Shown here in pieces: positions 5,525 through 53,156 of a stretch of DNA of 64,000 nucleotides. Source of the DNA: a virus. The translations under genes were made by a program, and so were the position numbers. The first letter of the stretch is position 1; each line of letters starts with the position of its first letter. The notes under the pieces are model-generated. The model saw only the letters and a program-made list of their open reading frames with translations. It was not told where the DNA came from and did no database searches. The DNA lies in IMG/VR virus record IMGVR_UViG_3300018890_000001, positions 1-64,000 of that record; one strand, written 5' to 3'.

Positions 5525-5565
5525 GACTACTATTTAAGTATATAAGATTTGCTTATAAAAAACAA
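5525..5565 (-). promoter_or_regulatory. Promoter of the shared GTAGTC class
   Basis: On the minus strand: TTGTTT (5565-5560), 17 nt, TATACT (5542-5537), 6 nt, GTAGTC (5530-5525), then the gene start at 5519. The predicted transcript begins at the GTAGTC. Confidence 0.7.
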
Positions 5566-5577
5566 CAGAATAGGATA

Positions 5578-5635
5578 CCAATATAAAGAAAAGCCCCAAT
5601 CACAAGACAGTAACTGGGGCTTTTCTTTATATTGG
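5578..5635. terminator. Long bidirectional terminator
   Basis: The arms AAAGAAAAGCCCCA and their complement are extended by flanking CCAATAT / ATATTGG to a stem of about 21 bp. It lies 20 nt past the stop of the minus-strand gene at 5655. Confidence 0.85.
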
Positions 5636-5654
5636 CTTCAATTGATAAAGGCTT

Positions 5655-5870
5655 TTAGAATTTAGCCTTTATCGTGTTTGGCGACCAATGCGATCGCACG
5701 AGGTCGTAACGCGCTTTACCTTGAGAAGGGTGCGTGTTCCGAAGCCAAACTCTTTTGCTTTCAGGACAAACGATGCAGTCTGGATAGACTGGCGCACCGT
5801 TTTCTGCGATTAATTCAATACGAGCGATTTCAAAGCTTTCACCATCGCGTAATGTGACATCTACAAACAT
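5655..5870 (-). CDS. Hypothetical small protein
   Basis: A 71-residue protein, beta-rich by appearance, opening MFVDVTLRDGESFEIARIE. No recognised family. A terminator follows the stop. It lies just downstream of the 93-codon frame at 5887 and may share its transcript. Confidence 0.5.
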   Translation of the reverse strand: MFVDVTLRDGESFEIARIELIAENGAPVYPDCIVCPESKRVWLRNTHPSQGKARYDLVRSHWSPNTIKAKF

Positions 5871-5886
5871 GGATTTTCCCTCTTAG

Positions 5887-6108
5887 TTATTTAGCTTGGT
5901 AGATTTTGGTCGTTACCCAACACCCATTTTTAAGTCGCTCTATAGTCACCTGATTGTCGTAAGGCATACCATCGGCAACAGTCATCCGAGAAAGTAAAAC
6001 CCGCATATTTGCGGTTTCAATCTTCACATTATCAAAATGCCCACTATGTAGTGTAGGCAGGTTTTCTAGATACTCAAGTGTGTAATGTGTTTTAGATTTA
6101 GATGGCAT
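5887..6108 (-). CDS. Hypothetical small protein
   Basis: The start chosen is MPSKSKTHYTLEYL because a GAGG ribosome site lies 8 nt upstream; the frame stays open a further 20 codons upstream without one. The product is 73 residues, with no recognised family. It is separated from the next minus-strand gene by 16 nt, so the two probably form a small operon ending at the 5578 terminator. Confidence 0.5.
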   Translation of the reverse strand: MPSKSKTHYTLEYLENLPTLHSGHFDNVKIETANMRVLLSRMTVADGMPYDNQVTIERLKNGCWVTTKIYQAK

Positions 6109-6207
6109 TACAATTACCTCTGAAACAACTATATTAATAGTAACATTATTACAATAATATACAAACAATTTATTATACTAAATATATACTTCACAAACCT
6201 TTTGATC

Positions 6208-6366
6208 ATGAATGCTTCAGCACTTCGCATAAAAGAAATCTTTACTGAAAACACGACCAAAGAGATTAAAAGCGTACAATCGCCCGAGCAATCTACACAA
6301 CCATTTTCCACATATCTACTAGGTGGGTTCGATCACCCGTTATTACCTAAATCTTGGCTAGAATAA
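6208..6366 (+). CDS. Possible 52-residue protein or leader peptide before the spike gene
   Basis: A 52-codon frame, beginning MNASALRIKEIF and ending LLPKSWLE. It lies after an AT-rich stretch with TATACT near 6174 and before the attenuator-like hairpin at 6393. No clear ribosome site is visible. It may be a small tail protein or a leader peptide for the spike mRNA. Weakly supported. Confidence 0.33.
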   Translation: MNASALRIKEIFTENTTKEIKSVQSPEQSTQPFSTYLLGGFDHPLLPKSWLE

Positions 6367-6392
6367 TTACAGCTCAATATCGTCGCTCAACC

Positions 6393-6428
6393 ATCCCTGG
6401 CAGCTCAAAACTGCTGGGGATTTTTATT
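6393..6428 (+). terminator. Leader hairpin with U-tract just before the spike gene (attenuator-like)
   Basis: ATCCCTGGCAG pairs with CTGCTGGGGAT (two G.U pairs, 7-nt loop), followed by TTTTTATT, ending 10 nt before the ATG at 6439. It may end the 6208 reading frame or attenuate spike expression. Confidence 0.6.
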
Positions 6429-6438
6429 GGAAAAAAAT

Positions 6439-9400
6439 ATGGATCTCAATCAATTCATCAACCCAGAACTTCCCGAATCGCACTTCCCAAACTTGCAGTC
6501 GGGTCAAGTTATCGGCTGGGTGCCAGCTACAGTTACCGACTTAGACGATCCAAAAGGTCTGGGTCGAATTCGTGTCAAAGTCGATTTAATCGATCCAAAT
6601 ACTTCAATCAGCAACCTTGAAGACGGTTGGTGCTGGGTAGGAGAACGTTACACCGTCAACGAAAAAGCGGGTGGCAGTCACCGACTGCTGCAAACGGGAA
6701 CCCAAATTGCAGCGTTACCAATGTTGGGTGATATGCGTCAACTACTGTTGCTCGACTGTTTACCGAATATGTACGATCGCCCGAATCCTGATTTCAATCG
6801 CGCGCAAGGTCGGCATGGCGAAACGACTCCGGGAGGAGTGACCGTTGCAAACGATGATACGAACCAAAGTCGAGTTGAAGCGTACCCGCACGGCGTAGTG
6901 AAATCAGTGTCAGGAGAAGGTGATGTTCAAACTTCAACTGCTGGTGGTGCCAGGTCGCAACTTACTAGAAACGGCGACGCGCGGATCGAATCACCCAAAG
7001 CGTTTTTACACGCGCTTGAAAATGGAGATTTGTCGGTCGCCAACGGTAGTGGCGCTGGCATGGCATTACAGGCTAACGGAAACACGACCGTGAAGTCGGC
7101 CTTTGGATCTGGTGTAACTCTCGGAGAAAAAGGAGCTACTTACACGGGACCGCTCAGTGAAGCTTCTGAATCTGTCAAGAAAGCCCGCAACTTGCTACTA
7201 GGTAATATCGGTCGCGGGTTAAAAATCATGGAATTACTCGAAGAAATAATGGGTGCGCTCAAGAGTGAAGACGCAGATCCGCAGCTTGCGAGTTCGGCTA
7301 TCAACAATTTGCTCGATCGCCTCGAAAAATATTTCTCAACGGATTTTGAGCAAGGTATCGAAACAATGATCGAGCTCGCGAAGCTTTCAGAAAAGGAGCT
7401 CGGTCGAACAATTGGAGATCAAATTGGACAAGCTTACGATATTGATTTAGCGTCGATTGTAGGCGAAGTTAAAGGAATTGTTGGCGGCGGTTTTCCTGAA
7501 AGTTCCCTCAGCAAAATCCGAGAGAAAGCGGCTCAGATAATTGCAACTAGCTTAGAAAAAGTTTTCACTTATTTTCCTTCACGGTTGCGCAATGTTAGCG
7601 CAAATATGTATTTGTCGGCGGTAACACGCGAGGAAGCGGACAAATGGGCCGATGAAGTCCTCAGCGGGAATCCCGGAACACAAGCAATGGACTTTATTAC
7701 TCGAATTCTGCAAGACGAACCAGGTGCGGGAACAGTATTGGCGGCGATCGAGCAGATTAAGGATGGAGATCCTGGGTATGATGATCTGCTTAAAAAATTA
7801 GGGAAGGCGATCGTACCTGCGGTGAGAGCTGCGTTTGGCGTTGAAGTAGAAGCAGAAGAAGAAATCAAACTAACAGACATCTTTTCAAAGCTGGCTGAAG
7901 ATGAGGAAGTAGTAAAAGAACTCGCTGCTTCATTGAATATCGAAAAGAAGGATCTTGAAAGTCAGCTTACTCGTGGCGTTGCACTATCCAACTTACGGGC
8001 GAGACTCAAGGAAGTGGTGCCAGCACAGCTCGTGGAGACTGGTACATTTCCATCTAAAGAGCTGCGCAACAAACTTATTCCGATCATGGAAGGCTTAAAA
8101 CACGATCCTGAAATGCAAATGCAGGTTCTAGTTTCTGAATGCGTCCCCAAAGGTTATGAATCAGTTAAGAATTTACTTGGTCTGGATGTCATTAACGGAA
8201 TCAAAGTCACCGAAAAACCTTGGGCGATCCTACGTCCTGGTGAGATTGAATCGACTAAAGACAAAGAAGAAATTACCGAAAAAATTGGAGCTGAGCAAAA
8301 AGCACTTTGCGAAAAAGCTGTTGGACCACTGGAAGCTTGTAAAGTTTTTGTCAAATTAATTCCTACCGCTAGGCAAGCGGTACAAGCAGTAATTCGATCT
8401 GACGTGGAGCAGCTAGACTGGACAATGACTCAGATTAAGGAATTGCTGCCTGAGAATGAAATCAAGATTGATTCTGTGCTGGCGATCGCAGAAAGCGCCT
8501 GCCGACCTCTGATTTCTCAGATGAAACCAAAACTAACAGAAGCTTTGGCTGCGCTACAACCCTTGATTAACGCCATTCCCGACAATTTCCATGCAACCTC
8601 TTTTGAGATATCAGAAGCGTCTGGCGAAATTGTAGCTGCTGGTAAAAATGTAGGGGGTCGCCTCGTCCTCAACTCAACACAGGGTGCGATGTTTTCCCCC
8701 AACGGCAAAAGTTCGGTGTTCGCTGCGCCCAAAGATATGGGAATGAAACTCGGTAAAGAAAACTCATTCAACGTGCACCACGACGCTGACAAAAAGGATG
8801 ATGACGGTCTAGAAGAGGCGTGGCAAACCAATTTCAACAAAGGATCGATCGCCACGCGCAATTCAGAAGAAAAGGTTAAGTCCGCCGGGTGGGTAATGGA
8901 TCGCAAAGGAGAATTTAAAGTTGCAAGCTATCCAGAAACCGAAAAAAATGAGAAACACAAATTTGATTTACATAAAGCCGGATTGGATTGGACAGGCCAA
9001 ACTTCGGAGATGGGCGTTTCGGAGAAAAAAATGGGGGCTAAAACTTTTATAGATGAAGTCGCTCAATCAGCTTTTGGGATGGAGTCATCCGACGAGCTTA
9101 AAGGGGGAATCACATCACTTCAAACCTTTAAAGAAGGTCTGCCCCAAACAATGATGCGCTTCGCTGCGAACGAAGCTCTCGGTGCCGGCGGTGTAGCGAC
9201 ATTGCAGTCAATTCGCGAAGGCAAACCCGAAGCGGTATTCGATTTAATCGGTGGGAAAGCAGGCGAAGCCGCAAAAGCAGCACTCCAAACCCTCAAAGAT
9301 GGCAATTTGGAGGCGGGCTTAGAATTTGCATCTGGATTATTAGGTGAAAACGGCGCAAGTCAAGGTGCCAAAGCGCTTATGCAGACACTGAAAGACGGTA

Positions 9401-10182
9401 AACCTGAAGCATTAATGCAGTTTGCCGCCAGTCAATTAGGTGAAGGTGGAGGCTCTGCTGCTCAGGGTGCAAAAGCGCTTATGCAGACGCTAAAAGACGG
9501 CAAACCTGAAGCATTGTTAGAATTCTTGGCTGGTGATGGAAAAGAAGATGGCGAAACTGCATCTACTACTATGCAGACCATGAAAGATGGTAAACCTGAG
9601 ACAAAAATGGAATTCAAAGCCGGTAAAGCAGGTAAACCAGCTAAGGCAATGATGCAGACCTTGAAAGATGGCGAACCAGAAACTCAACTCGATCTTGCCA
9701 GTGGTGAAGGTGGAAAAAAAGCGATGGCTGGATTACAAACTTTCAAGGGTGGACTCCCCGAGACGTTCTCCGGTATTAAAGGTGGTGTCGCAATGTTCCA
9801 AAGTTTTATCGAAGATCCAACATCAAAACTCAGTTTTGCAGGGATTGCTGGTATGGCAATGGAGGCTTATCTTGGCGCGAATCCACAGGCAGCAATGGCG
9901 ATCCAGGGCGGAAAAATGCTAATGCAATCTTTGGATGGAGGGAAGTTTGAACTTGGTGATAAGTTAAAACTTGGTGGTTTTGGTGGTGGTGGAATCGATA
10001 TCGGAAACGAAATCAAACTTGAAAATGCGCTAGGTGCGATGGTTAAAGTCGGATCGACGTTACAGATGATTAGTCCTGACGGCGGTAATCTAGTAGTAAG
10101 TAACGTTGTAAAAATTGGCGGTCGCGATATTATTTCCGATATTATTGGAATTTTGGATCGACTTAGTAACGCTGGGTTGTAA
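6439..10182 (+). CDS. Giant gpV/VgrG-like tail spike (baseplate) protein with tandem repeats
   Basis: A 1247-residue protein. Residues 15-115 fit the phage baseplate-V / gp5 OB fold: GWVPATVTDLDDPKGLGRIRVKV, a WCWVGERY strand, and an AALPMLGDMRQLLLLDCL strand. A beta-prism-like segment with regular short repeats follows (about 130-240), then a long mostly helical region (about 250-780). From about residue 892 to 1110 there are eight or nine imperfect repeats centred on QTLKDGKPE, each followed by a short hydrophobic stretch and Gly/Ala spacer. A Gly-rich C-terminus ends the protein. It probably forms the trimeric membrane-puncturing spike; the extra 1000 residues are far beyond ordinary gpV and may be a carried effector or an extended needle. 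The start at MDLNQFI follows a weak GGAAAAAAAT leader. Confidence 0.72.
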   Translation: MDLNQFINPELPESHFPNLQSGQVIGWVPATVTDLDDPKGLGRIRVKVDLIDPNTSISNLEDGWCWVGERYTVNEKAGGSHRLLQTGTQIAALPMLGDMRQLLLLDCLPNMYDRPNPDFNRAQGRHGETTPGGVTVANDDTNQSRVEAYPHGVVKSVSGEGDVQTSTAGGARSQLTRNGDARIESPKAFLHALENGDLSVANGSGAGMALQANGNTTVKSAFGSGVTLGEKGATYTGPLSEASESVKKARNLLLGNIGRGLKIMELLEEIMGALKSEDADPQLASSAINNLLDRLEKYFSTDFEQGIETMIELAKLSEKELGRTIGDQIGQAYDIDLASIVGEVKGIVGGGFPESSLSKIREKAAQIIATSLEKVFTYFPSRLRNVSANMYLSAVTREEADKWADEVLSGNPGTQAMDFITRILQDEPGAGTVLAAIEQIKDGDPGYDDLLKKLGKAIVPAVRAAFGVEVEAEEEIKLTDIFSKLAEDEEVVKELAASLNIEKKDLESQLTRGVALSNLRARLKEVVPAQLVETGTFPSKELRNKLIPIMEGLKHDPEMQMQVLVSECVPKGYESVKNLLGLDVINGIKVTEKPWAILRPGEIESTKDKEEITEKIGAEQKALCEKAVGPLEACKVFVKLIPTARQAVQAVIRSDVEQLDWTMTQIKELLPENEIKIDSVLAIAESACRPLISQMKPKLTEALAALQPLINAIPDNFHATSFEISEASGEIVAAGKNVGGRLVLNSTQGAMFSPNGKSSVFAAPKDMGMKLGKENSFNVHHDADKKDDDGLEEAWQTNFNKGSIATRNSEEKVKSAGWVMDRKGEFKVASYPETEKNEKHKFDLHKAGLDWTGQTSEMGVSEKKMGAKTFIDEVAQSAFGMESSDELKGGITSLQTFKEGLPQTMMRFAANEALGAGGVATLQSIREGKPEAVFDLIGGKAGEAAKAALQTLKDGNLEAGLEFASGLLGENGASQGAKALMQTLKDGKPEALMQFAASQLGEGGGSAAQGAKALMQTLKDGKPEALLEFLAGDGKEDGETASTTMQTMKDGKPETKMEFKAGKAGKPAKAMMQTLKDGEPETQLDLASGEGGKKAMAGLQTFKGGLPETFSGIKGGVAMFQSFIEDPTSKLSFAGIAGMAMEAYLGANPQAAMAIQGGKMLMQSLDGGKFELGDKLKLGGFGGGGIDIGNEIKLENALGAMVKVGSTLQMISPDGGNLVVSNVVKIGGRDIISDIIGILDRLSNAGL
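9115..9770 (+). repeat. In-gene tandem repeat encoding the QTLKDGKPE units
   Basis: Related DNA blocks of about 50-110 nt repeat the coding core for MQTLKDGKPEA; the copies near 9375 and 9480 are almost identical, indicating recent duplication. Confidence 0.75.
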
Positions 10183-10225
10183 AAACAAAGGGCGATCGAA
10201 TTACATTGATCACCCTTTGTTTTAT
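10182..10225 (+). terminator. Terminator after the spike gene
   Basis: AAAACAAAGGGCGATCGAA pairs with TTGATCACCCTTTGTTTT across a short loop. One of a family of terminators with a GATCG core in the stem. Confidence 0.88.
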
Positions 10226-10265
10226 TGCAAATAAAATGATTTACGCATATAATAATAGTGTAGTA
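10225..10265 (+). promoter_or_regulatory. Promoter of the shared GTAGTC class
   Basis: TTGCAA (10225), 17 nt, TATAAT (10248), 6 nt, GTAGTA (10260). Confidence 0.7.
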
Positions 10266-10281
10266 AATCACAGGTTTTTCT

Positions 10282-10644
10282 ATGCTATTAATTCGCTTAG
10301 ACTGGGACACATTCAATGAAGAATTAGCAAAACGATATCTCAACAACTTCACAAAAGAAGGTCGTTGGGTATTGTGGCGGTATCTCGAAGACGTATCCGA
10401 ACAAAGAGAACTGCGAGGTCTGTCTAATATTCAAATAGACTTCGTTGTTATTGCTCTCACTTTTAAACAACGCTCTCTAAAAGCGTTTGCAAAAGAATAC
10501 TATCTTGACGATCGTGACTACGACAATTTGCACAAAACAATTCGTGACCGACTGATGGAAGTAGAACGGTTAATCGACTTTTGTGAAGAGTCTGGAGACA
10601 TTGTGTATCGCAACAGCACCCGGACACCGACTGACAGCTACTAA
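10282..10644 (+). CDS. Hypothetical protein, possible distant member of the 12.1-13.4 kb paralogue family
   Basis: A 120-residue protein. Its first 40 residues (MLLIRLDWDTFNEELAKRYL...FTKEGRWVLWRYLE) follow the same pattern as the products at 12136, 12583 and 13056: a short strand, a helix, F-T/S-x-E/K-G, then a second helix; the C-terminus has IVYRN where the others have TVVY. Likely an all-in-one small helical domain of unknown role. It has its own promoter and terminator. Confidence 0.6.
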   Translation: MLLIRLDWDTFNEELAKRYLNNFTKEGRWVLWRYLEDVSEQRELRGLSNIQIDFVVIALTFKQRSLKAFAKEYYLDDRDYDNLHKTIRDRLMEVERLIDFCEESGDIVYRNSTRTPTDSY

Positions 10645-10652
10645 CTTTGATT

Positions 10653-10696
10653 AAAAAACCCAACAAGATAACGCATATCTTGTTGGGTTTTTATTT
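10653..10696 (+). terminator. Rho-independent terminator
   Basis: AAAAAACCCAACAAGATA / TATCTTGTTGGGTTTTT with a 5-nt loop. Confidence 0.9.
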
Positions 10697-10758
10697 TCTA
10701 TTGGTCTAAAATACAATCACTTTATAGGTTTCCACTTATCACCAGCAGCGATCACCTC

Positions 10759-10935
10759 TTACGCAAATTTAACAGCAGCCGTGTGGCTATCAAAACCACG
10801 TTTGCAAATAGCTAATTGAGCTAGACCAAGACCCCACCAAGTAGGCTTGTCTGCCCAGACAATTATTTCTCCATTTCCTTCCTCTGTCCAAATCCTGATT
10901 GGACAACCGTCATGAATTGTTTCCTATTCTTTCAT
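10759..10935 (-). pseudogene. Small gene with an in-frame TAG at codon 4
   Basis: GAGGTG lies just upstream of ATG AAA GAA TAG. After the amber codon the frame stays open for 54 codons with clearly protein-like content (GCPIRIWTEEGNGEIIVWAD, then WWGLGLAQLAICKRG), to TAA at 10761. No other start codon with a ribosome site serves this frame. Either a nonsense mutation inactivated a small gene or the amber codon is read through. The region between 10697 and 10963 holds nothing else that I can recognise. Confidence 0.5.
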
Positions 10936-10963
10936 AAGACACCTCTAATTTTTACCTCAAATC

Positions 10964-11002
10964 AAAAAAAACTCCAGCGCGATTTGCACTGAAGCTTTTT
11001 TG
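10964..11002 (-). terminator. Terminator of the 11003 gene
   Basis: On the minus strand CTTCAGTGC pairs with GCGCTGGAG (two G.U pairs) and is followed by a run of T. Confidence 0.75.
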
Positions 11003-11455
11003 TTATTTTTTGATTGCGTCCTGTAATATTTGTGCAACTTTCCTCAAACTTCCACTTGAAGAGTAGCGTGCATCCATCACCGTTTTCAAGATGGTCACGT
11101 AATCGTCAGCATTCCAATGATTGTTCAAAACCAAAACACTCAAAGCTTCTCGAAACGCTTCTATCGGGACAATGGGAGTGTTTTTAGCGAGGCATCCTCT
11201 GACTATAGAGGTCTGCGCTCGTCTATCCCAGTCTTCTTGAATTTCGGGAGTGACAATTGATATTTGATAACCAGCAGCCTCTTTCTTAGTAGCAAAGCCG
11301 TCTACTTTTTTGAATTTAATACTTGGATCACTTTCTACCGTAATAGAGCGATCGGTAACAGCCAAAACTATAGTCTGATACCACGGTCTACTCGAAGAGG
11401 GCTTAACCGCGACGATATCACCAACACTCAAGTCACGCAAACATCTAATTGCCAT
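11003..11455 (-). CDS. Hypothetical protein
   Basis: A 150-residue protein. The N-terminal third (LSVGDIVAVKPSSSRPWYQTIVLAV) looks like a small SH3-like barrel; the C-terminal half is helical. No family recognised. It is divergent from the plus-strand pair at 11645-12034, with a perfect palindrome in the shared upstream region. Confidence 0.55.
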   Translation of the reverse strand: MAIRCLRDLSVGDIVAVKPSSSRPWYQTIVLAVTDRSITVESDPSIKFKKVDGFATKKEAAGYQISIVTPEIQEDWDRRAQTSIVRGCLAKNTPIVPIEAFREALSVLVLNNHWNADDYVTILKTVMDARYSSSGSLRKVAQILQDAIKK

Positions 11456-11510
11456 TGGATTCGACAGATAAACTACATTTAAATCATATACATCTCCAGC
11501 GAGAAAGTCA

Positions 11511-11528
11511 ACATATTGTACAATATGT
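11511..11528. promoter_or_regulatory. Perfect 18-bp palindrome, candidate operator
   Basis: ACATATTGTACAATATGT is a perfect inverted repeat in the region between divergent genes, upstream of a ribbon-helix-helix-like gene. Such regulators often bind palindromes in front of their own operon; the link is inferred. Confidence 0.45.
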
Positions 11529-11644
11529 ACATACCATCAAAACCGTCAATATTTATGTTATATCGAATACTGCCAACAAAATCAGGACAATACCCGCTGA
11601 CTGGAGATATCTCGTGTATTCAAACAGCCGCCGATCACCAACAC

Positions 11645-11797
11645 ATGATCGGTAATTTAAAAGCATTTGCTCTGCGGTTAACTTGCATGGCAAGTTTGCT
11701 TGAGATTTACGATATGCCCGGAGGACTGGAAGAGGCTGTCGAGACTTTAGAATCGATCGCCAAGTTTTACGATAAAACCGACACACAATCTAAATAA
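11645..11797 (+). CDS. Small acidic protein upstream of an RHH-like gene
   Basis: The start at MIGNLKAFALRL is preferred. The frame stays open to 11516, but that part overlaps the palindrome and reads less like protein. The product is about 50 residues with two helices and an acidic core (PGGLEEAVETLESIAK). It is 3 nt from the next gene, so the two are surely co-translated. It may be the partner of the RHH-like protein; no toxin family is recognised. Confidence 0.45.
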   Translation: MIGNLKAFALRLTCMASLLEIYDMPGGLEEAVETLESIAKFYDKTDTQSK

Positions 11798-11800
11798 GCC

Positions 11801-12034: not shown

Positions 12035-12079
12035 TGGAATAATGGTGATCGAAAAGCAATGCGATCGCCATTATCTTGA

Positions 12080-12121
12080 TTGATTTTTACCTAGAAGTAT
12101 TTTATACTGATAAAGTAAGTC
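12080..12121 (+). promoter_or_regulatory. Promoter of the shared GTAGTC class
   Basis: TTGATT (12080), 17 nt, TATACT (12103), 6 nt, GTAAGTC (12115; one inserted A relative to the consensus), then an AGGAG ribosome site. Confidence 0.65.
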
Positions 12122-12135
12122 GATAGGAGTCAATC

Positions 12136-12525: not shown

Positions 12526-12526
12526 G

Positions 12527-12567
12527 TTGTGTTAATTTGTATAGTCTAATATAATTTAAGTGTAGCG
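12527..12567 (+). promoter_or_regulatory. Promoter of the shared GTAGTC class
   Basis: TTGTGT (12527), 17 nt, TATAAT (12550), 6 nt, GTAGCG (12562). Confidence 0.68.
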
Positions 12568-14065: not shown

Positions 14066-14106
14066 TTTACTTTAATAGAATTAAATCGTATAATAAAAAA
14101 GTAGTC
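14066..14106 (+). promoter_or_regulatory. Promoter of the shared GTAGTC class
   Basis: TTTACT (14066), 17 nt, TATAAT (14089), 6 nt, GTAGTC (14101). Confidence 0.72.
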
Positions 14107-14574: not shown

Positions 14575-14588
14575 CATTGTTGATTGCA

Positions 14589-14631
14589 TTTACATTACTT
14601 AAACAAAAAGATATACTAATAAGTAGTAGTT
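14589..14631 (+). promoter_or_regulatory. Promoter of the shared GTAGTC class
   Basis: TTTACA (14589), 17 nt, TATACT (14612), 5 nt, GTAGTA (14623). Confidence 0.68.
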
Positions 14632-15131: not shown

Positions 15132-15172
15132 TTTACAGGAATCTACAATATGTTAATATTATAAACGTAGTC
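15132..15172 (+). promoter_or_regulatory. Promoter of the shared GTAGTC class
   Basis: TTTACA (15132), 16 nt, TAATAT (15154), 7 nt, GTAGTC (15167). Confidence 0.62.
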
Positions 15173-17925: not shown

Positions 17926-17966
17926 AACTACATCTATATAGTATGATATTTTTTATTGTCTGTAAA
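17926..17966 (-). promoter_or_regulatory. Promoter of the shared GTAGTC class
   Basis: Minus strand: TTTACA (17966-17961), 17 nt, TACTAT (17943-17938), 6 nt, GTAGTT (17931-17926). Confidence 0.7.
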
Positions 17967-21618: not shown

Positions 21619-21659
21619 GACTACATCAATATATTACAATTTATTACGTACTAAGTAAA
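21619..21659 (-). promoter_or_regulatory. Promoter of the shared GTAGTC class
   Basis: Minus strand: TTTACT (21659-21654), 17 nt, TAATAT (21636-21631), 6 nt, GTAGTC (21624-21619). Confidence 0.68.
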
Positions 21660-22868: not shown

Positions 22869-22909
22869 TTGACGCATACATAATTTCTTGGTAAGATTAA
22901 ATAGTAGTG
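22869..22909 (+). promoter_or_regulatory. Promoter of the shared GTAGTC class, best match
   Basis: TTGACG (22869), 17 nt, TAAGAT (22892), 6 nt, GTAGTG (22904). Since transcription would begin at 22904, the GTG at 22907 cannot be the start codon of the next gene. Confidence 0.72.
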
Positions 22910-23810: not shown

Positions 23811-23852
23811 TTGACGATTTATACGTTTGTTGTTATACTAAATCATGTAGTT
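23811..23852 (+). promoter_or_regulatory. Promoter of the shared GTAGTC class
   Basis: TTGACG (23811), 17 nt, TATACT (23834), 7 nt, GTAGTT (23847). It directly follows the previous terminator. Confidence 0.72.
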
Positions 23853-36459: not shown

Positions 36460-36500
36460 TTGAGTCTCGGAAGTGACTTCGGTATACTCACTTTGTAGTC
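36460..36500 (+). promoter_or_regulatory. Promoter of the shared GTAGTC class
   Basis: TTGAGT (36460), 17 nt, TATACT (36483), 6 nt, GTAGTC (36495). Confidence 0.72.
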
Positions 36501-46648: not shown

Positions 46649-46664
46649 GGATACACTAATCAGC

Positions 46665-46703
46665 AAAAAAAAGACGCGATTTATAAAAATCGCGTCTTTT
46701 TTA
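46665..46703 (+). terminator. Rho-independent terminator inside the ATPase gene cluster
   Basis: AAAAGACGCGATTT / AAAATCGCGTCTTTT. It divides the cluster into an upstream and a downstream transcription unit. Confidence 0.88.
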
Positions 46704-46756
46704 TCGTGTTCGTTGAAACTGCGTGATATTTGTGCAAATATCGGAACAATCGTTGC

Positions 46757-46890
46757 TTGTGTACTAATTGGGTGTAATAGTATTACACATAGGTCACTAC
46801 ACAAGACTTTTGTGTAATGCAAATTTGTGTAGCAAGTAAATCAAAGTTCAATTGTTGTAAGCGTTTGGGGAGGGTTGTATTTGTGTAATG
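46757..46890. promoter_or_regulatory. Cluster of TTGTGTA half-sites, candidate operator array
   Basis: TTGTGTA(A) occurs at 46757, 46810, 46825 and 46881, in reverse at 46798, and a 17-bp palindrome GTGTAATAGTATTACAC lies at 46772-46788. The last copy overlaps the start codon at 46888. Seven half-sites in 134 bp suggest cooperative repression of the second transcription unit. Confidence 0.6.
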
Positions 46891-47361
46891 AATAATCTGG
46901 ATGACACGCCCGCGATCGTGTATCAGGTTGCTGTATTAAATGCCCGCGAATTTGCTGCTTGCAGATCGGCTCTAACAAATGGGTACTCGATCAAGCGAAG
47001 TGAGCTTTATATCCTTAATCGGAGAACTGGAAAGCTCGTAACGCGAAAAACGCTTTGGGAATGGGATTGCATATTGCAAGCACACCCCAAAATGATCAAC
47101 TATCGTCGGGATAGCACGCAGCAATCCCTGTGGAATCCTGGGCAAGCCTGGAACCCTCATCAGGTATGGTGTTTAGAAAAAGTTGCGGACTTTATGGCGA
47201 CCAAAGCCATCTACCGCAACACTGAAAGCAAAAAGAGAAAGTACAAAAGCAAAGGGGTGTTGCGGTTCCCAACTTACGAAGAACTCAACCAATACCTTGC
47301 CGACAATCACGAAAAATTCACCCACAAACAATTTCTGAAGGAGAGATTTCATGTCAGTTAA
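46888..47361 (+). CDS. Hypothetical protein
   Basis: A 157-residue basic, Trp-rich protein; LYILNRRTGKLVTRKTLWEW, and a Lys-rich C-terminal region. Could bind nucleic acid. The next gene starts 11 nt before its end. First gene after the operator array, so a regulator is possible. Confidence 0.52.
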   Translation: MNNLDDTPAIVYQVAVLNAREFAACRSALTNGYSIKRSELYILNRRTGKLVTRKTLWEWDCILQAHPKMINYRRDSTQQSLWNPGQAWNPHQVWCLEKVADFMATKAIYRNTESKKRKYKSKGVLRFPTYEELNQYLADNHEKFTHKQFLKERFHVS

Positions 47362-48231
47362 ATTTGATGATTTGGCTACCGAATTAAAGACCACCGTCGG
47401 TCAATTGACTACTCTGGCGGAAATCCTAAATGAGGAAACAGCCAATTCTGAAACACCATTAAATTTACCAATTGGAGCAAAGGTAAATTTGACTAACGAA
47501 GACGCTGTGCTGCTGCGAAATGAGTTCAAGAAAAGACAACAAAGTAATGTTCCGGCGAACCCCACTCCGCAGTTGAATCCCGGTCCGATGCGCAATACAA
47601 GCGATATTCAGCAAGCGGAAGCATCTGACGTTCCAACTGCTCAGCAAGAAGCCCCGACGGCATCTGAAATGGATACTGTGCATATAAATTTCGAGCAGGC
47701 AATTTCTGCTCAAGAAACACAGGATCAACAGCTTTTTGAGAACGATCTTTCCACAATCAAACACCATCAATTCCAGCTTGGTGTACTCAAGGCTATATAT
47801 GGTGCAACGGCTAATACTGAAGGGTTTATGGCAGGGCAGAATGCACTTGCAGCCGCTAGGAATGCACAGGCTGTTGAGGCGCTTAAGCGTAAAGCAAGGA
47901 TGCTGGCGGGAACCGAGGGCGCTGATTTTTTGCCCAAATATCCAAATGTAGCCCAGCTCTCGACGGAGATCCCGGAAGCGCCGAAGTCACTGAATCAACA
48001 GAATTCAAACAGTTTGGATCGCCTGAAGAAATCGTCGCCGCAATAGACAAGCTTCGCGAAGAGAATCGATCGGTAACGTTTATTCTCTTCGTTAGTTCAA
48101 ATCAAAATCTGTGGAGTCGAATATTGGTTATGAATTGGCTACGGAATCGGATCAACAATTTTTTAGCAGCACCATCCCCCAGTTATACCGAATTTAGCTC
48201 TATTTGCGCTAATTTGATGGGTTTACCTTAA
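47351..48231 (+). CDS. Hypothetical protein with candidate -1 frameshift extension (231 or about 293 residues)
   Basis: The zero frame ends at 48046 (231 residues): a helical Glu/Gln-rich protein. At 47926-47932 lies T_TTT_TTG, a textbook slippery heptamer in the correct phase. The -1 frame opens directly after a TGA adjoining this site and runs 99 codons to 48231, with protein-like content (FGSPEEIVAAIDKLREENRS, VTFILFVSSNQN, and a basic WLRNRINNFLAA). That frame has no good start codon of its own. The zero-frame tail is low-complexity. Either programmed frameshifting makes a longer form, or a recent indel split one gene. Confidence 0.58.
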
Positions 48232-48240
48232 GGAGGCAAA

Positions 48241-48540
48241 ATGACAGTATCAAACGCAAACATTCCTTTCGATCGCGAGCAAGTCCGGTCTACTAAGCCT
48301 GAAGTTCAACAAGCGGAATCTCGCGTCACTGACGAGTTTGAAAGAATTATTCCGATTGACGAACAGACTTTTAATCGCTTGCGATTAGGTGGAATTGATG
48401 AATCAGAGTATGGAACTATTGAAGACCGTTTGTTTGTATCGAGAACGGCATTTAATTCAAAAGGTGATTGCAGCCCTACTGACAATACCTGGAGGGTACT
48501 CAAGTCGATCGCCCGCAAAATTAGCAAAATAGGGGGTTGA
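48241..48540 (+). CDS. Hypothetical protein
   Basis: 99 residues with an AAGGAGG ribosome site. Acidic; no recognised family. Confidence 0.52.
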   Translation: MTVSNANIPFDREQVRSTKPEVQQAESRVTDEFERIIPIDEQTFNRLRLGGIDESEYGTIEDRLFVSRTAFNSKGDCSPTDNTWRVLKSIARKISKIGG

Positions 48541-48545
48541 ATTAA

Positions 48546-49355
48546 ATGAATCAAGGAAAAGGTGGGGCGCTAGTTCCGTTGGCAGACCGCATGATAGTTC
48601 CCACTGGTTCTGCGATGCTAGCGAACGACTACAACATCGATGGCTTGGACATCCCAAGCACTTTGACGCTTGACGATTTTGAAGCCTTGGGTCAGCGGGC
48701 GATCGAGATCCAATGGCTTTTAGATAATTTACCAACTATCAAAGATAAGTTGATGCTTGTCATCAGGGGGCAGGTTTCCTGGGAGCAAATGAAGTGTGAA
48801 TTGATGAAAGCTGGGTACAAGGGTGCCGGCGATATCAAAAAGAGCACTATCGACGCTCTTATTGCAGAACAAGCTTTCAATGCCAAGGTTGCCCAGCAGG
48901 ATTACAGATTAAGCGCAAACACGAAGAAATTCGGTCAAGAGACTACCGAAGTCAATGCCTTTACGGATTCGTTAATCGAGCTGGATTTGGCGTCACTCAG
49001 AGCGCGGAACGCTGCAATTCTCGAACAAAAAAGACAAGCTGCCAACAGTGAAGATGCCGCAGCTATCGCAGAATGGGAGACTGCTCGAAAAAACAACGAT
49101 CTACAAGCAGCTTCAATGTTGCTTCAGTACGGAACCGCAGCTCGATCGCACCCTAAATTTCCCGGTGGAGCGCAGGCGATCGGTGGTTCCTCCCGGCAAC
49201 AAGCGTCATTCGGTGGTTTTAGTGGAACCCGTCAACAACCCAAAGATCGTTTAAAAATCGAACTCGAAGGTAATGTCGCTGGCGCAGCAAACCGTTTTGC
49301 TAACCGCGCTGGCAATGGCGTCAAAAAGCTGAAAAATTTCTTTTTTGGAGGGTAG
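48546..49355 (+). CDS. Hypothetical protein with Gly/Arg-rich tail
   Basis: A 269-residue helical protein. The C-terminal 70 residues are Gly/Gln/Arg-rich (GGSSRQQASFGGFSGTRQQP), suggesting a flexible or nucleic-acid-binding tail, ending LKNFFFGG. 2 nt from the next gene. Confidence 0.52.
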   Translation: MNQGKGGALVPLADRMIVPTGSAMLANDYNIDGLDIPSTLTLDDFEALGQRAIEIQWLLDNLPTIKDKLMLVIRGQVSWEQMKCELMKAGYKGAGDIKKSTIDALIAEQAFNAKVAQQDYRLSANTKKFGQETTEVNAFTDSLIELDLASLRARNAAILEQKRQAANSEDAAAIAEWETARKNNDLQAASMLLQYGTAARSHPKFPGGAQAIGGSSRQQASFGGFSGTRQQPKDRLKIELEGNVAGAANRFANRAGNGVKKLKNFFFGG

Positions 49356-49357
49356 TC

Positions 49358-49753
49358 ATGTTTTCGTTAGCTAATCGACCAGAGCCACCCACAGTTGAAG
49401 TTGATGTGGAAGTCCCGAAATCCGCATATTATCTACGTTTGAAATCCCAAAGCAACGTAGCCTTTTTGGGGATCTGCTTTGGGGTGGGAGTGGTCGCTAC
49501 CAATGTTATCCGGCTGTTCCCGGAATACTACGTTTTTTACGCTCTCCTGTCTGTCTCAGGAATAATTGCATTGCTTGCGTTTCCTTCGGCAGACCTTGGA
49601 GCTAAATATTTGTGGAGATGGGGTGCAATCGCGCTTCTGGGTGGTTTAGCGCTGCCTTGGTGGGAAATCCTACATCTCATCCCTAAATGGGTGTGGATAG
49701 GCTTATTTTTGGCGATTGTTGGGATTGTAGTGGCGATCGGAGGTAATCACTAA
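49358..49753 (+). CDS. Polytopic membrane protein of the ATPase operon
   Basis: 131 residues with four predicted transmembrane helices (about 34-52, 58-76, 83-101, 110-127). TAATG overlap with the ATPase gene: the two are certainly co-translated, so this is a likely membrane partner. Confidence 0.6.
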   Translation: MFSLANRPEPPTVEVDVEVPKSAYYLRLKSQSNVAFLGICFGVGVVATNVIRLFPEYYVFYALLSVSGIIALLAFPSADLGAKYLWRWGAIALLGGLALPWWEILHLIPKWVWIGLFLAIVGIVVAIGGNH

Positions 49754-51537
49754 TGAAGCACATCGCTGCAAAGCTTGTTTTAAGTGGTTTAGCGATTTTA
49801 ATGGCGGTCGCGCCAGTTCCATTTGAAAAGTGGGCTTGGCAGCGAGTTGGGCTTGGCATTCTGGGATTGGCGGGAATAACTTCTACTAAGTCCAAAATTG
49901 ACCAGGAGATGGAGGAACAGCATTTAGTTGATGTTCAAGTTTTTGAAGAAAAACTGTACGAAAGACAACTTACTGAATTACAGCGCGGGCTAGCCCTGGA
50001 AGCTGCGCGACAACAAGAAGCTATTCGGTTTGACTTACAAACTAAAATGGCGACCGCTGACTACCAAGGCGCGTTTGTCACCATCATGGAAGAAAAGCAC
50101 CCTTACTACCTTGATGCTTTACAAGCACAACAACAAGCTGCTTTAGAGGCTCAAAAACGAGCGTATTCTGCTGAAGGTGGATTGGTTGACCGTGTTGGTG
50201 AAATGATTGAAGTTGGGGTGATCGGAGCTGAGACAGGTATTAACCTAGAAACTGGTGTACAGCAAAATTCAATCCCTAAATATTTAAGGAGTTTCGTTTC
50301 AACTACTTGTTTGGCTTGGGGCGCGCAAGGTAGCGGTAAATCGTGGTTTGTTCGCTATTTAGCAAAAATTAAGGTTGATAAAGGATATCGCGTTATCGTC
50401 TTCGATCCAAACAGCAATCAAGCTGCTTGGAGAGGTGTAGAACTCATCAATACTTACGAAGCTATTGAAGAGAAGATGCGTTGGTATATCGAAGAAGTAA
50501 TGTCGCGCTACCAAGTGTTTACAGCTTCTGATTATGACGAAGACGTTTGGCGGGCGCAACTTTGGACTGACGGTAAAGCAATTAGTGTTATTTGCGAAGA
50601 GGTTACAACCTATGCCGATTTTATCCCAGACACCGAATTAGTTAAACAGTTTATCAAGGTGGCGACTACATTAAGTCGAAAGCAAGAGATGCCAGTTACG
50701 TTTGTTACCCACAACAATACGCAAACTTGTTTCGGCAATATCAAAGGTCTTGGTCAGTTAATCGCGGATATGCAACAAATTAAGTTGATTCCCAAAACAG
50801 ACCCACAAACAGATCAGCCAGTTGCATCTGGTCGGGCGCAGGTGCGATCGAACAGCGAACAAAATTGGGTGGATGTTACAGTACCGAGAATTACCTCAAA
50901 AATTACAGATTTTACCCGAATAACACAGGTTATTTCTACCCAAGAACAGTCAGATATTGTTGATACTGAGACATCGAATCCTGTGGATAATTCCGTAGAG
51001 CTAGATCAAAACGAGATTAATTTGATTACCAGTATCGAAACTCAAAAAGAGCAACTCGACGCGACTTTCAATAAAACCTACAATCCGCTAGATCACTTCA
51101 TGCAAGAAGCTAGTCAAGAGCAGTTGGAAGAGATGATCAAAAGTTGGCGAGCGTTGGCTGATACGTCGCGATCAGACGTATCAGATACTTTGATACAAAA
51201 AAACGCATCTGATACGCATCAATCGCCAGAACCTGCACAGGATAACGGTTCGCGACGTATTTGGGATGTATCAGATTTCCGTAAAAACCTACCAGATCGC
51301 CAAGAGGAGGTGATGTTTCGAGAGTTGGATACATTTTTTCAAAACGTATCTCGTAGTCCCAACAGAATTATTAAAGAAGCGTGGGGACTCTCAAATGGGA
51401 ATGTTTACAGTTCAATTGGAAAACCATGTTTTGTCTATTTAGTGACAAAATATGGCACTGACGAGCACAAGACTTCCCCGAAGTTCGCAAAACACATTGG
51501 AGAATACTTGGGTTCTGATGACGCTAATGACGAGTAA
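49753..51537 (+). CDS. Membrane-anchored P-loop ATPase, FtsK/HerA/VirD4-like
   Basis: 594 residues. Two short N-terminal membrane helices (about 5-22, 30-45), a coiled-coil region (50-150), then the motor: CLAWGAQGSGKSWF (Walker A near residue 195), YRVIVFDPNSN, ISVICEEVTTYADF (Walker B), VTFVTHNN (sensor). The C-terminal 100 residues look like a winged helix (FRELDTFFQNVSRSPNRIIK), as in FtsK gamma, after a linker repeating S-D-T/V. It probably moves DNA or protein at the membrane. VirD4-like coupling, packaging and segregation are all possible. It is the core of the operon. Confidence 0.68.
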   Translation: MKHIAAKLVLSGLAILMAVAPVPFEKWAWQRVGLGILGLAGITSTKSKIDQEMEEQHLVDVQVFEEKLYERQLTELQRGLALEAARQQEAIRFDLQTKMATADYQGAFVTIMEEKHPYYLDALQAQQQAALEAQKRAYSAEGGLVDRVGEMIEVGVIGAETGINLETGVQQNSIPKYLRSFVSTTCLAWGAQGSGKSWFVRYLAKIKVDKGYRVIVFDPNSNQAAWRGVELINTYEAIEEKMRWYIEEVMSRYQVFTASDYDEDVWRAQLWTDGKAISVICEEVTTYADFIPDTELVKQFIKVATTLSRKQEMPVTFVTHNNTQTCFGNIKGLGQLIADMQQIKLIPKTDPQTDQPVASGRAQVRSNSEQNWVDVTVPRITSKITDFTRITQVISTQEQSDIVDTETSNPVDNSVELDQNEINLITSIETQKEQLDATFNKTYNPLDHFMQEASQEQLEEMIKSWRALADTSRSDVSDTLIQKNASDTHQSPEPAQDNGSRRIWDVSDFRKNLPDRQEEVMFRELDTFFQNVSRSPNRIIKEAWGLSNGNVYSSIGKPCFVYLVTKYGTDEHKTSPKFAKHIGEYLGSDDANDE

Positions 51538-51576
51538 TCTATGTTTAATTAATCAAACTACCAAACCAGGGGTTAA

Positions 51577-51882
51577 ATGCAACTTATCCAATTTCTTTTT
51601 TTGATTGGGGTTTCGTGTCTACTTTTCATGTTTCTTTTTTCAGGGGTGATCGGTTACTTCTTTTACTCTTTGTCACACGGTGCTCCGCCGCTGGAAGTAA
51701 CGACACCAACACTTCTTCATTGGGAAAACCTACCGAAAGTTTCCAAGAAAACGTTACTTCCAGCGATTACTATGCTTACCGCTCTCTGGGTGTTAATCGG
51801 TTCAGGGGAATCTAAGAAAGAAGACGACAAAAGTGGAAAAAGCAAAGGACGTACTCGGAGACGCCACCAAGATGAAGATTAA
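51577..51882 (+). CDS. Small membrane protein
   Basis: 101 residues: helix at about 5-25, a second at about 60-76, then a Lys/Arg/Asp-rich tail. No family recognised. Confidence 0.55.
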   Translation: MQLIQFLFLIGVSCLLFMFLFSGVIGYFFYSLSHGAPPLEVTTPTLLHWENLPKVSKKTLLPAITMLTALWVLIGSGESKKEDDKSGKSKGRTRRRHQDED

Positions 51883-51907
51883 AAATTCACACTCTTGAGG
51901 AAAACCC

Positions 51908-52603
51908 ATGTATTTAGAAAAGACGGATTGTGACAACTTTGTTGAAGACCTTTGGATCAATAATATGGATGAAGGGATTCAGGTTGTAGGTGCTAAAGAT
52001 TCGTTCAAGTTAAACGCTATTTGCCAGCTACTTGAAAAATTAAGTCCAGACCCTACTGAGATTTTTGTGTTGAGTCCAGATATCGAGCAGAAACAATTTT
52101 GGGATTTGGCAGGTATCCCGATCGCCCAAGATTTGAATCAAATTGCGTCCTCGCTCCGTCAATTACTTCAGGAATTGCATAAAAGGCAAAGCATTTTCCG
52201 CATTTTTATCGGACATCACATCAACTGCGTAATCGAGATCGATGATTTGCATGATGCACTTGTTGAGCGAGGGCTCAGTTTGGGTATTGAGTACGACGCG
52301 CGAGAATTGAATGAAGCTGTGGCAGAACTTCGAGATCTTGGTCCAAGAGTTGGCATTACTGTTATTGCATGTACAAAATCTGAACCGTATTGGAACCACT
52401 GCCTTTATTCGGGAGAATCAGCGATCCGATTCGCGAAAACCGCGAGTCAAGATGTTCTTGAGGAAGTTAGTAACCAAGCATACCCGTGTTGCTTTACGAT
52501 CGCCAACGATGTCTATTTAATGTCGGTGACAGACCATCTTACGTCGTCTATACCTCGGGTGATCGCTTTGATTTCTGAAAACAAACGGGCGATCGCGCTG
52601 TAG
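51908..52603 (+). CDS. ATPase-like protein without P-loop, partner of the membrane ATPase
   Basis: A 231-residue protein. IQVVGAKDSFKLNAICQLLE aligns with a Walker A region but lacks GKS/T. NCVIEIDDLHDALVERG sits in the Walker B position and GITVIACTKSEPYWNHCL matches the sensor strand VTFVTHNN of the ATPase at 49753. Strand order is that of a RecA/HerA core. Likely an inactive paralogue of the motor, acting as a structural or regulatory subunit. Confidence 0.5.
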   Translation: MYLEKTDCDNFVEDLWINNMDEGIQVVGAKDSFKLNAICQLLEKLSPDPTEIFVLSPDIEQKQFWDLAGIPIAQDLNQIASSLRQLLQELHKRQSIFRIFIGHHINCVIEIDDLHDALVERGLSLGIEYDARELNEAVAELRDLGPRVGITVIACTKSEPYWNHCLYSGESAIRFAKTASQDVLEEVSNQAYPCCFTIANDVYLMSVTDHLTSSIPRVIALISENKRAIAL

Positions 52604-52648
52604 ATTCATTTTTCAAATACTAATCAAACACAACCATAGGAGGTTCTC

Positions 52649-52909
52649 ATGATTTCTCAAAATTACATCGGCGTCGAGTCAATCAATATTCATTCTTCAG
52701 CGAACGTGACAATTCATAAGGGAGATGCGTTTCAAGTAAAGATTACACCACTATCTGAGGGCAGATACAATATAGCGAATTATGGTATAATATGTATAGA
52801 AAAGAAAATGACACTACACAGATTCAACAAAGCGAATAAATCGAGACAACTCGAAGCAGCCATTGAAGTAGAAGATCGTCACTTTTGTAAAACCAAAATA
52901 AATATTTAA
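52649..52909 (+). CDS. Hypothetical small protein
   Basis: 86 residues with AGGAGG ribosome site. Beta-rich, no family recognised. Last gene of the operon. Confidence 0.5.
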   Translation: MISQNYIGVESINIHSSANVTIHKGDAFQVKITPLSEGRYNIANYGIICIEKKMTLHRFNKANKSRQLEAAIEVEDRHFCKTKINI

Positions 52910-52959
52910 TTTATTTCAAAAATAAATCAAGATATTTCGGATCAGTGATTCGTAAGTTG

Positions 52960-52988
52960 TTGAAAACGTTAAACACAGTCAGTATAGT
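52960..52988 (+). promoter_or_regulatory. Promoter of the candidate small RNA
   Basis: TTGAAA (52960), 17 nt, TATAGT (52983). Not of the GTAGTC class. Confidence 0.62.
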
Positions 52989-52994
52989 GCGCGA

Positions 52995-53115
52995 CATTAT
53001 ACAGATTAAGACCGAGAGATGAGAATTCTTGCGGTCAAAACTTGCTCCCACCAGAGGTGGATCTAGAGCGAACAAAAAGCCCGCCTTATCCTGACTGGAT
53101 TTGGAGGGCTTTTTG
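52995..53115 (+). ncRNA. Candidate structured small RNA, about 120 nt
   Basis: It has a promoter upstream, no reading frame of note, and three helices in order: GACCG / CGGTC (53010, 53032), CCACC AGA GGTGG (53048-53060), and a terminator AAAAAGCCC / GGGCTTTTT (53075, 53105) with T-rich tail. It lies between two coding units. No known RNA family is recognised. Confidence 0.52.
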
Positions 53116-53156
53116 TTTTAATATTTTCATAAATGCTGTATATTAACAATGTAGCT
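53116..53156 (+). promoter_or_regulatory. Promoter of the shared GTAGTC class
   Basis: Weak -35 (TTTTAA, 53116), TATATT (53139), 6 nt, GTAGCT (53151). Confidence 0.58.

What the first reader, a model, noticed from the sequence alone, without database searches (positions are those of the whole stretch)
5525..53156. Shared promoter class whose transcripts would all begin with GUAGUC
On both strands, single-gene units have a -10 box followed at nearly fixed distance (5-7 nt, usually 6) by GTAGTC or a variant: 5525, 10260, 12115, 12562, 14101, 14623, 15167, 17926, 21619, 22904, 23847, 36495, 53151. Most also have a fair -35 at 17 nt. Normal spacing places +1 at the first G. Upstream regions of the structural genes, HU, the antisense RNA and the small RNA lack it. 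A common initial sequence may be read by a phage regulator, affect promoter escape, or tag phage mRNA. This is not a known sigma-70 element.
Basis: partly seen in the sequence, partly recalled or inferred. Interest (0 to 1): 0.82.

Follow-up and report, generated by a model that had tools for sequence, protein, structure and literature searches.

The report
Phage promoters sharing one start sequence
A large virus that probably infects cyanobacteria starts about forty of its genes with the same five letters placed at exactly the same distance from the promoter, and a distant relative keeps those letters while the sequence around them has changed, which points to an unknown switch that controls these genes as a group.

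Summary
The window is the first 64 kb of a 199.8-kb phage record, probably a cyanophage. In the 158 kb examined, GTAGT follows a -10-like hexamer at exactly 6 nt 30 times (next highest nearby offset 8, usually 0-3). A profile built without the -35 region recovers TTGAC upstream of a 17-nt spacer. About 40 genes carry TTGACW-N17-TATAAT-N6-GTAGTY; the ATG usually lies 19-26 nt after the G, normally with no Shine-Dalgarno sequence. One gene per paralogue family gives GTAG in 31 of 31.

A relative (61.6% mean protein identity) has the same class, and orthologues tend to share it (p = 5e-7). In 8 shared promoters GTAGT is identical at 40 of 40 positions, flanking columns at 106 of 232. Five cyanobacterial plasmids and four named cyanophages show no excess. 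Apparently unrelated phages also carry GTAG at +1; across IMG/VR the exact arrangement exceeds two pattern controls (43 groups, truncated, against 13 and 10).

So this is a selected, phage-specific promoter class. I favour a phage transcription regulator whose site spans the -10 and start point; a 5' RNA tag is the main rival. No start site has been mapped.

The parts
5525..5565 (-). promoter, -35 to +6; GTAGTC at +1 (G at 5530), -10 TATACT, spacing 6; drives the 178/175-aa ORF ending at 4983
10225..10265 (+). promoter; GTAGTA at 10260, -10 TATAAT, spacing 6; ATG 22 nt downstream (10282)
12080..12120 (+). weak variant GTAAGT at 12115, -10 TATACT, spacing 6; the orthologue in the relative G037 has GTAGTT
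12527..12567 (+). promoter; GTAGCG at 12562, -10 TATAAT, spacing 6; ATG 21 nt downstream
14066..14106 (+). promoter, exact TATAAT-N6-GTAGTC (G at 14101); ATG 21 nt downstream
14588..14628 (+). promoter; GTAGTA at 14623, spacing 5 (a second GTAGT starts at 14626)
15132..15172 (+). promoter; GTAGTC at 15167, poor -10 (AATATT), spacing 6; ATG 29 nt downstream
17926..17966 (-). promoter; GTAGTT (G at 17931), -10 TACTAT, spacing 6; ATG 21 nt downstream
21619..21659 (-). promoter; GTAGTC (G at 21624), -10 TAATAT, spacing 6; gene product looks like a pentapeptide-repeat protein (by eye)
22869..22909 (+). promoter; GTAGTG at 22904, -10 TAAGAT, -35 TTGACG, spacing 6
23811..23852 (+). promoter; GTAGTT at 23847, -10 TATACT, spacing 7
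36460..36500 (+). promoter; GTAGTC at 36495, -10 TATACT, spacing 6; GTAGTC also kept at the orthologue in G037
53116..53156 (+). promoter; GTAGCT at 53151, -10 TATATT, spacing 6; ATG 19 nt downstream

Best explanation
GTAGT at +1 to +5 is the class mark of a phage regulon transcribed by the host's main sigma factor. The most likely reader is a phage-encoded regulator that recognises promoter DNA from the -10 box to about +6 and so switches some forty small transcription units together. A protein bound there would clash with RNA polymerase, so repression (prophage silencing or timed shut-off) is more likely than activation. Shown: the promoter class, the exact register, conservation of GTAGT, no excess in the host-like DNA tested. 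Unknown: the protein.
For: Exact 6-nt register (30 at offset 6) with an independent -35. One gene per family: GTAG 31 of 31. Relative G037: orthologues share the motif more than chance (both 10, only G000 7, only G037 9, neither 134; p = 5e-7), and in 8 shared promoters GTAGT is identical at 40 of 40 positions, flanks 106 of 232 (pairs were picked for having at least 4 of 5 letters of GTAGT on each side, so the first figure is inflated). The six start-site columns carry 9.5 bits, below the 13.05 bits needed to pick 47 sites in the genome; with the -10 (6.5 bits) it suffices. The centres of TATAAT and GTAGT lie about 11.5 bp apart, near one helical turn (arithmetic). Precedents: the SPbeta element bound by the repressor MrpR (PMC10516654, passages) adjoins a TANNNT box at one register in 5 of 10 copies examined; L5-type repressors read asymmetric sites oriented with transcription, as a monomer with two DNA-binding domains (PMC9283540, passages). 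Predicted promoters of equal strength without GTAG exist in the same phage, so the mark separates classes.
Against: No binding protein was identified. No PF00589 integrase was found in G000, so a lysogenic state is unsupported except by a BstA-like gene. GTAGT at other distances from the -10 is not enriched, whereas a free DNA-binding repressor often has some sites elsewhere. In SPbeta the known operator does not keep one register to a -10 in the other 5 of 10 copies, so the precedent for strict register is only partial; I lowered this reading from 0.42 to 0.38 after that recheck. The tight ATG distance and missing Shine-Dalgarno sequence are not explained by this reading. Phages with GTAG at +1 outside this group share no protein with G000 in the stretches compared.
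Confidence: 0.38

Rival explanations
1. RNA tag: all these mRNAs begin GUAGU and have an AUG about 21 nt in, and the 5' end is read on the RNA by the ribosome or a phage RNA-binding protein, standing in for the missing Shine-Dalgarno sequence or controlling decay.
For: Leader length 19-29 nt in 38 of 45, and 20 of 20 at 19-28 nt in the G037 stretches. Shine-Dalgarno-like sequence in 2 of 45 motif genes against 22 of 83 other called genes. The position is counted from the transcript start, which explains the exact register better than an operator does.
Against: In record G029, 14 GTAG sites stand at offset 6 and most leaders carry Shine-Dalgarno sequences by eye; in G006 and G023 several are not closely followed by an ATG, so there GTAG is not a translation signal. 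G000 leaders are barely less structured than shuffled ones. 4 of 20 G037 leaders have a Shine-Dalgarno-like sequence.
Confidence: 0.27
2. Intrinsic start-site effect: host RNA polymerase starts or escapes better on GTAGT, with no dedicated reader.
For: Initial transcribed sequence is known to modulate escape (PMC12464699, start of abstract in a listing); several apparently unrelated phages share GTAG at +1; kayvirus start sites 6 bp after the -10 are described as enriched in G (PMC7698491, passages).
Against: In 131 non-redundant strong phage promoters +1 is A in 52% and G in 12%, and GTAG stands at +1 in 1 of 131. Predicted strong promoters in the same phage lack it. Five nearly invariant positions is more than a composition effect would need.
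Confidence: 0.15
3. A phage small RNA pairs with GUAGUC at the 5' ends of all these mRNAs.
For: A shared 5' hexamer would be a natural seed target.
Against: Of 17 intergenic GACTAC outside the promoters none lies within 150 nt downstream of a predicted promoter; 4 of 19 AACTAC do (not pursued further). The promoter list used held only the 260 best of 158 kb.
Confidence: 0.05
4. No function: the promoters are copies spread by gene duplication.
For: 41 motif genes fall in 31 families, 6 of them with 2-3 members.
Against: One per family still gives GTAG in 31 of 31 while 14 of 15 spacer columns listed carry under 0.3 bit; the relative keeps GTAGT while flanks diverge.
Confidence: 0.02

Closest known systems
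SPbeta repeated element (SPBRE) bound by MrpR
   Same: Repeated asymmetric element upstream of many dispersed genes of a large phage (found in 9 of 10 upstream regions examined), overlapping sigma-type promoters in part: a TANNNT box adjoins it at one register in 5 of 10 copies.
   Different: SPBRE is 15 bp (PMC10516654, passages) and lies in the spacer, not at the start site; register to the -10 is not kept in 5 of 10 copies. SPbeta shows no GTAGT at offset 6. Its reader is known, ours is not.
Operators/stoperators of cluster A mycobacteriophages (L5, TipsytheTRex)
   Same: 26 asymmetric sites in TipsytheTRex, oriented with transcription, read by a monomeric repressor (PMC9283540, passages).
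   Different: 13-bp site, also found away from promoters; in G000 GTAGT is not enriched away from the promoter register.
Marine T4-like cyanophage early promoter (e.g. Synechococcus phage S-CAM22)
   Same: TTGACC-N17-TATAAT-TACAGG-GTAGTC with an ATG about 20 nt on; that it is early is assumed.
   Different: 2 clear cases in 50 kb of S-CAM22 and no excess over the whole record (21 against 27 in the control); the leader carries AAGAGG.
Staphylococcus kayvirus early and late promoters
   Same: Start position 6 bp after the -10, described as enriched in G (PMC7698491, passages).
   Different: Only the first base is described in the passages seen; no GTAGT element is mentioned there.
T5 early promoters with a conserved transcribed region
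   Same: A strong phage promoter family with conserved sequence after +1 (recalled; the effect of the initial transcribed sequence at T5 N25 seen as the start of an abstract, PMC12464699).
   Different: The T5 sequence is not GTAGTC and is held to act through RNA polymerase itself (both recalled).

Membership tests
Sigma-70/SigA-type promoter | -35 TTGACA-like and -10 TATAAT-like hexamers about 17 nt apart | tested here: met
   -35 emerges from unscored columns with a 17-nt spacer; -10 6.5 bits, -35 2.7 bits
Sigma-70/SigA-type promoter | transcription starts about 7 nt after the -10 | not testable with these tools
   no RNA data; GTAGT lies where +1 is expected
SPBRE-type repressor operator | repeated element at many dispersed transcription units | tested here: met
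   47 sites scoring 13 or more in 158 kb
SPBRE-type repressor operator | SPBRE sequence and MrpR-like (tyrosine-recombinase fold) reader | tested here: not met
   sequences differ; no PF00589 match in G000, which does not exclude a diverged one
L5-type stoperators | sites also away from promoters | tested here: not met
   no enrichment at other offsets; 77 GTAGTC remain against 71.9 expected when the 16 at offset 6 are set aside
Dyad operator of a dimeric repressor | second half-site (GACTAC) near the first | tested here: not met
   GACTA within the 24 nt downstream in 0 of 47 sites, 1.1 expected
Phage-encoded sigma factor class | sigma-70 region 2 homologue in the phage | tested here: not met
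   PF04542: 0 matches in G000; 10 of 14 control genomes rang; other sigma families not searched
T4 middle (MotA) promoter | MotA box near -30 in place of the -35 (recalled) | tested here: not met
   the class has an ordinary -35 and its extra element at +1

The most novel reading that the evidence does not exclude
A bacterial initiator element: GTAG at +1 to +4, in strict register with a sigma-70 -10 box, used independently by unrelated phage lineages (this cyanophage group, record G029, low-GC phages such as G006 and G023, and marine cyanophages) to mark viral promoters for a dedicated reader acting at the start site or on the nascent 5' end.
Probability: 0.3. Interest if true: 0.82.

Novelty: new variant of a known kind. 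Interest (0 to 1): 0.62.

Why it matters
Large phages must keep their own genes apart from the host's while using the host polymerase. Known solutions put a mark upstream (MotA box), change the sigma factor or polymerase, or lay an operator over the promoter. Here the mark is five bases at the likely start point itself, in exact register, conserved in a relative, and it recurs in apparently unrelated phages. That gives a short, testable handle: one substitution series in a reporter would tell whether the mark is read on DNA, by polymerase, or on RNA.

Tried and rejected
Host feature: five Nostocales/Chroococcales plasmids gave 109 matches against 176 in the reversed control; rejected for these, though cyanobacterial chromosomes could not be searched.

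Small RNA seed: no promoter-driven GACTAC, 4 AACTAC not pursued. Dyad operator: 0 of 47; the GTAGTC...GACTAC dyads seen by eye at L029 and L109 are not in G000. Sigma-dependent pause element: +7 is not a fixed T, so a -10-like repeat in the transcribed region is not supported. A second placement, GTAG just upstream of a TATAAT-like box, occurs 12 times in the G037 stretches, in varied contexts; not pursued.

Strict-register precedent: I first read the SPbeta element as fixed to the -10 in 9 of 10 promoters; a recheck shows a TANNNT box at that register in 5 of 10 copies. I lowered the operator reading from 0.42 to 0.38 and raised the RNA tag from 0.25 to 0.27.

Relatives by protein: DNA polymerase, clamp and terminase queries found none in IMG/VR; two more protein queries found none among named phages, nor did the terminase-like one. 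The relative G037 came by chance from the GTAGTT scan. A protein common to GTAG-using phages was not found in the stretches compared. The IMG/VR scans for GTAGTC, GTAGTT and the general promoter stopped at 120 stretches, so those counts are lower bounds. No wrong-spacing control was run for GTAGTT. A GTDB scan also hit its limit and had no control, so it says nothing about enrichment in bacteria.

Papers: the searches listed no paper that I recognised as describing this element. In one search 1,706 papers hold GTAGTC, promoter and phage (as letters anywhere) and I saw only the first 15 listings. Most subscription papers are not held; the Syn9 transcriptome paper was not.
Full report
WHAT THE WINDOW IS. 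The window is bases 1-64000 of a virus record of 199,763 bases. It encodes a terminase-like protein (49753-51537), a baseplate-wedge-like protein at 99322-100518, a very long tape-measure-like protein, a family A DNA polymerase and sliding-clamp proteins. Its DNA polymerase is nearest, at 22-26% identity, to phages of Nodularia, Pseudanabaena, Microcoleus, Thermus and Erwinia. The cyanobacterial repeat GCGATCGC (its name HIP1 is recalled) occurs 48 times in 158 kb, and one TnpB is about 60% identical to copies on Trichormus and Cyanobacterium plasmids. A cyanobacterial host is therefore likely but inferred. Megablast of window bases 1-25000 found no similar phage record.

THE OBSERVATION. All 13 listed sites exist. 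Eleven have 6 nt between the -10-like box and GTAG or GTAA, one has 5 and one has 7; 5 of 13 are full GTAGTC. Over 158 kb, both strands, I took 1185 hexamers within one mismatch of TATAAT (A2 and T6 kept) and counted GTAGT at offsets -40 to +40: 30 at offset 6; 1 at 5; 3 at 7; 8 at 3 and 5 at 1, part of which is overlap between neighbouring AT-rich hexamers; 0-5 elsewhere, usually 0-3. Binomial p against the genome-wide GTAGT frequency is 5e-32. The whole-record pattern search gives 49 matches of TATAAT-N6-GTAGTC with up to 2 mismatches against 13 for the reversed pattern, and 24 against 1 with up to 1 mismatch.

ANATOMY. A profile using only columns -14 to +7 was iterated to 62 hits. TTGAC then appears at -35, before a 17-nt spacer, in columns never scored. 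Some of the 62 are chance; several lie inside called genes. With a stricter score and GTA at +1, 47 sites remain. Of the 45 with a usable ATG, 38 have it 19-29 nt from the G, median 21. The exceptions are 11 (5530, where another start lies at 20), 43, 55, 80, 143, 146 and 147. Shine-Dalgarno-like sequence stands before 2 of 45 motif genes, 22 of 83 other called genes, and 311 of 3787 of all ATGs. Predicted sigma-70 promoters of equal strength without GTAG also exist: among the 260 best, GTAG is at +1 in 26 of 139 intergenic and 2 of 114 coding ones, 7 lying in between (sums over the bins). So the element marks a subclass. Of the 47 sites, 15 lie in the window and 32 at 90-178 kb; none scored at 40-50 kb.

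NOT DUPLICATION. The 41 motif genes with a near ATG fall into 31 families. One per family gives G, T, A, G in 31 of 31, T at +5 in 97%, C at +6 in 65%, while 14 of the 15 spacer columns listed carry under 0.3 bit.

CONSERVATION. A relative, G037 (188,399 bases), surfaced in the GTAGTT scan because its promoter drives an orthologue of the G000 gene at 110863. I fetched 102 kb of it, chosen where its pattern matches lay, so its counts are enriched by choice; the whole-record count with up to one mismatch is 23 against 4 in the control. In the fetched part GTAGT stands at offset 6 after 21 of 745 hexamers, at most 5 at any other downstream offset, and 12 at offset -10, a different placement that I looked at and left. 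All 20 leaders with an ATG are 19-28 nt and 4 of 20 have a Shine-Dalgarno-like sequence. There are 160 reciprocal best hits at 61.6% mean identity: both have a motif in 10, only G000 in 7, only G037 in 9, neither in 134; these calls were lenient and include spurious matches, yet the association is clear (odds ratio 21, p = 5e-7). Clear G000 motif genes whose orthologue lacks it include 11455, 90982 and 143110. Of the 10 shared pairs I dropped 2 as misplaced. In the remaining 8, GTAGT agrees at 40 of 40 positions, -10 at 44 of 48, -35 at 36 of 48, spacer at 58 of 136, discriminator at 23 of 48, +7 to +12 at 25 of 48. Pairs were chosen for having at least 4 of 5 letters of GTAGT on both sides, which inflates the 40 of 40 and the Fisher p of 9e-13. 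Cases such as 12136 (GTAAGT in G000, GTAGTT in G037) show turnover.

NO EXCESS IN HOST-LIKE DNA. Five cyanobacterial plasmids: 109 matches, 176 in the control. Nodularia, Pseudanabaena and Microcoleus phages: 57 against 71. S-CAM22: 21 against 27 (sums mine).

ELSEWHERE. The same with N9 gave 17 and with the permuted word GATGTC 11, both complete. Much of the excess is one promoter family in marine T4-like cyanophages, judged by likeness to S-CAM22, but after clustering 43 groups remain from the truncated scan against 13 and 10. Record G029 has 14 GTAG at offset 6 in 20 kb, most leaders with Shine-Dalgarno sequences by eye; G006 has 7 in 9 kb and G023 has 6 in 16.7 kb, where offset 1 also has 6. 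In 131 non-redundant strong promoters picked without regard to the start, +1 is A in 52% and G in 12%, and GTAG is at +1 once. So GTAG at +1 belongs to particular lineages and is not a general preference.

MECHANISM. The six start-site columns carry 9.5 bits, the -10 6.5, and 13.05 bits are needed to single out 47 sites. GTAGT alone could not be found by a free DNA-binding protein, so its reader must also sense the promoter, the bound polymerase, or the RNA end. Three readings fit. (1) A phage regulator whose site includes the -10. In SPbeta the element of the repressor MrpR (PMC10516654, passages) was recovered upstream of 9 of 10 target genes, and a TANNNT box adjoins it at one register in 5 of 10 copies, with TAGACA 17 nt before it in 4: a partial precedent for an operator in register with a promoter. 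L5-type repressors show that a monomer can read an asymmetric oriented site (PMC9283540, passages). (2) A 5' RNA tag, supported by short leaders without Shine-Dalgarno sequences and by the strict register, weakened by G029. (3) An intrinsic effect on polymerase, weakened by the rarity of GTAG at other strong promoters. I put them at about 0.38, 0.27 and 0.15; the first two were moved by 0.04 and 0.02. G000 has no match to Sigma70_r2 or the phage integrase family. A BstA-like gene hints at a temperate past (its role in prophages is recalled).

NOVELTY. No paper that I saw describes this element; the searches and their limits are listed under tried and rejected. The nearest in print is the note that kayvirus start positions 6 bp after the -10 are enriched in G (PMC7698491, passages). 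I file it as a new variant of a known kind: a phage promoter class with an extra element, unusual in that the element lies at the likely start point.

Noticed in passing
G000 152684 to about 167281 (L012:6684-20000 and L013:25-1281), + strand: One reading frame of about 4,865 codons (arithmetic over two stretches), ending in a tape-measure-like segment: a very long tape-measure protein. My gene caller missed most of it because the stretches end at 166000.
   Followed up: partly
G000 125199-125993, + strand (L010:19199-19993): BstA-like abortive-infection protein (PHROG 6287, E 6e-43), divergent from a GTAGTT promoter at 125060.
   Followed up: no
G000 143759-147967: Two large divergent genes (720 and 652 aa), the first with a sliding-clamp-like stretch and the second with a weak one (below Pfam's cut-off), start from back-to-back promoters with identical TATAATAATAGAGTAGTC; the relative G037 has the same layout with its own identical pair (30214 and 30261).
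   Followed up: partly
G000 148873-150117, - strand: DndB-like protein (PF14072, E 3e-51) with a weaker GTAGTC promoter at 150141.
   Followed up: no
window 54862-56058 and L013:3975-5165: Two TnpB-family genes; the first is about 60% identical to TnpB of Trichormus and Cyanobacterium plasmids.
   Followed up: partly
L029, L109 (IMG/VR low-GC phage fragments): Here GTAGTC at +1 is often followed by AAGAG or similar and then ACTAC or ACTAT, a dyad at the very start of the transcript, unlike G000.
   Followed up: partly
G037 13741, 30226, 30249, 116650, 140865 and others: GTAG directly upstream of a TATAAT-like hexamer occurs 12 times in 102 kb of G037 and 4 times in 158 kb of G000; contexts differ and it is unexplained.
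   Followed up: partly
G000 167304-167321: A perfect 18-bp palindrome ATACTACAATTGTAGTAT in which each strand reads as a -10-like box followed at 6 nt by GTAGTA.
   Followed up: no
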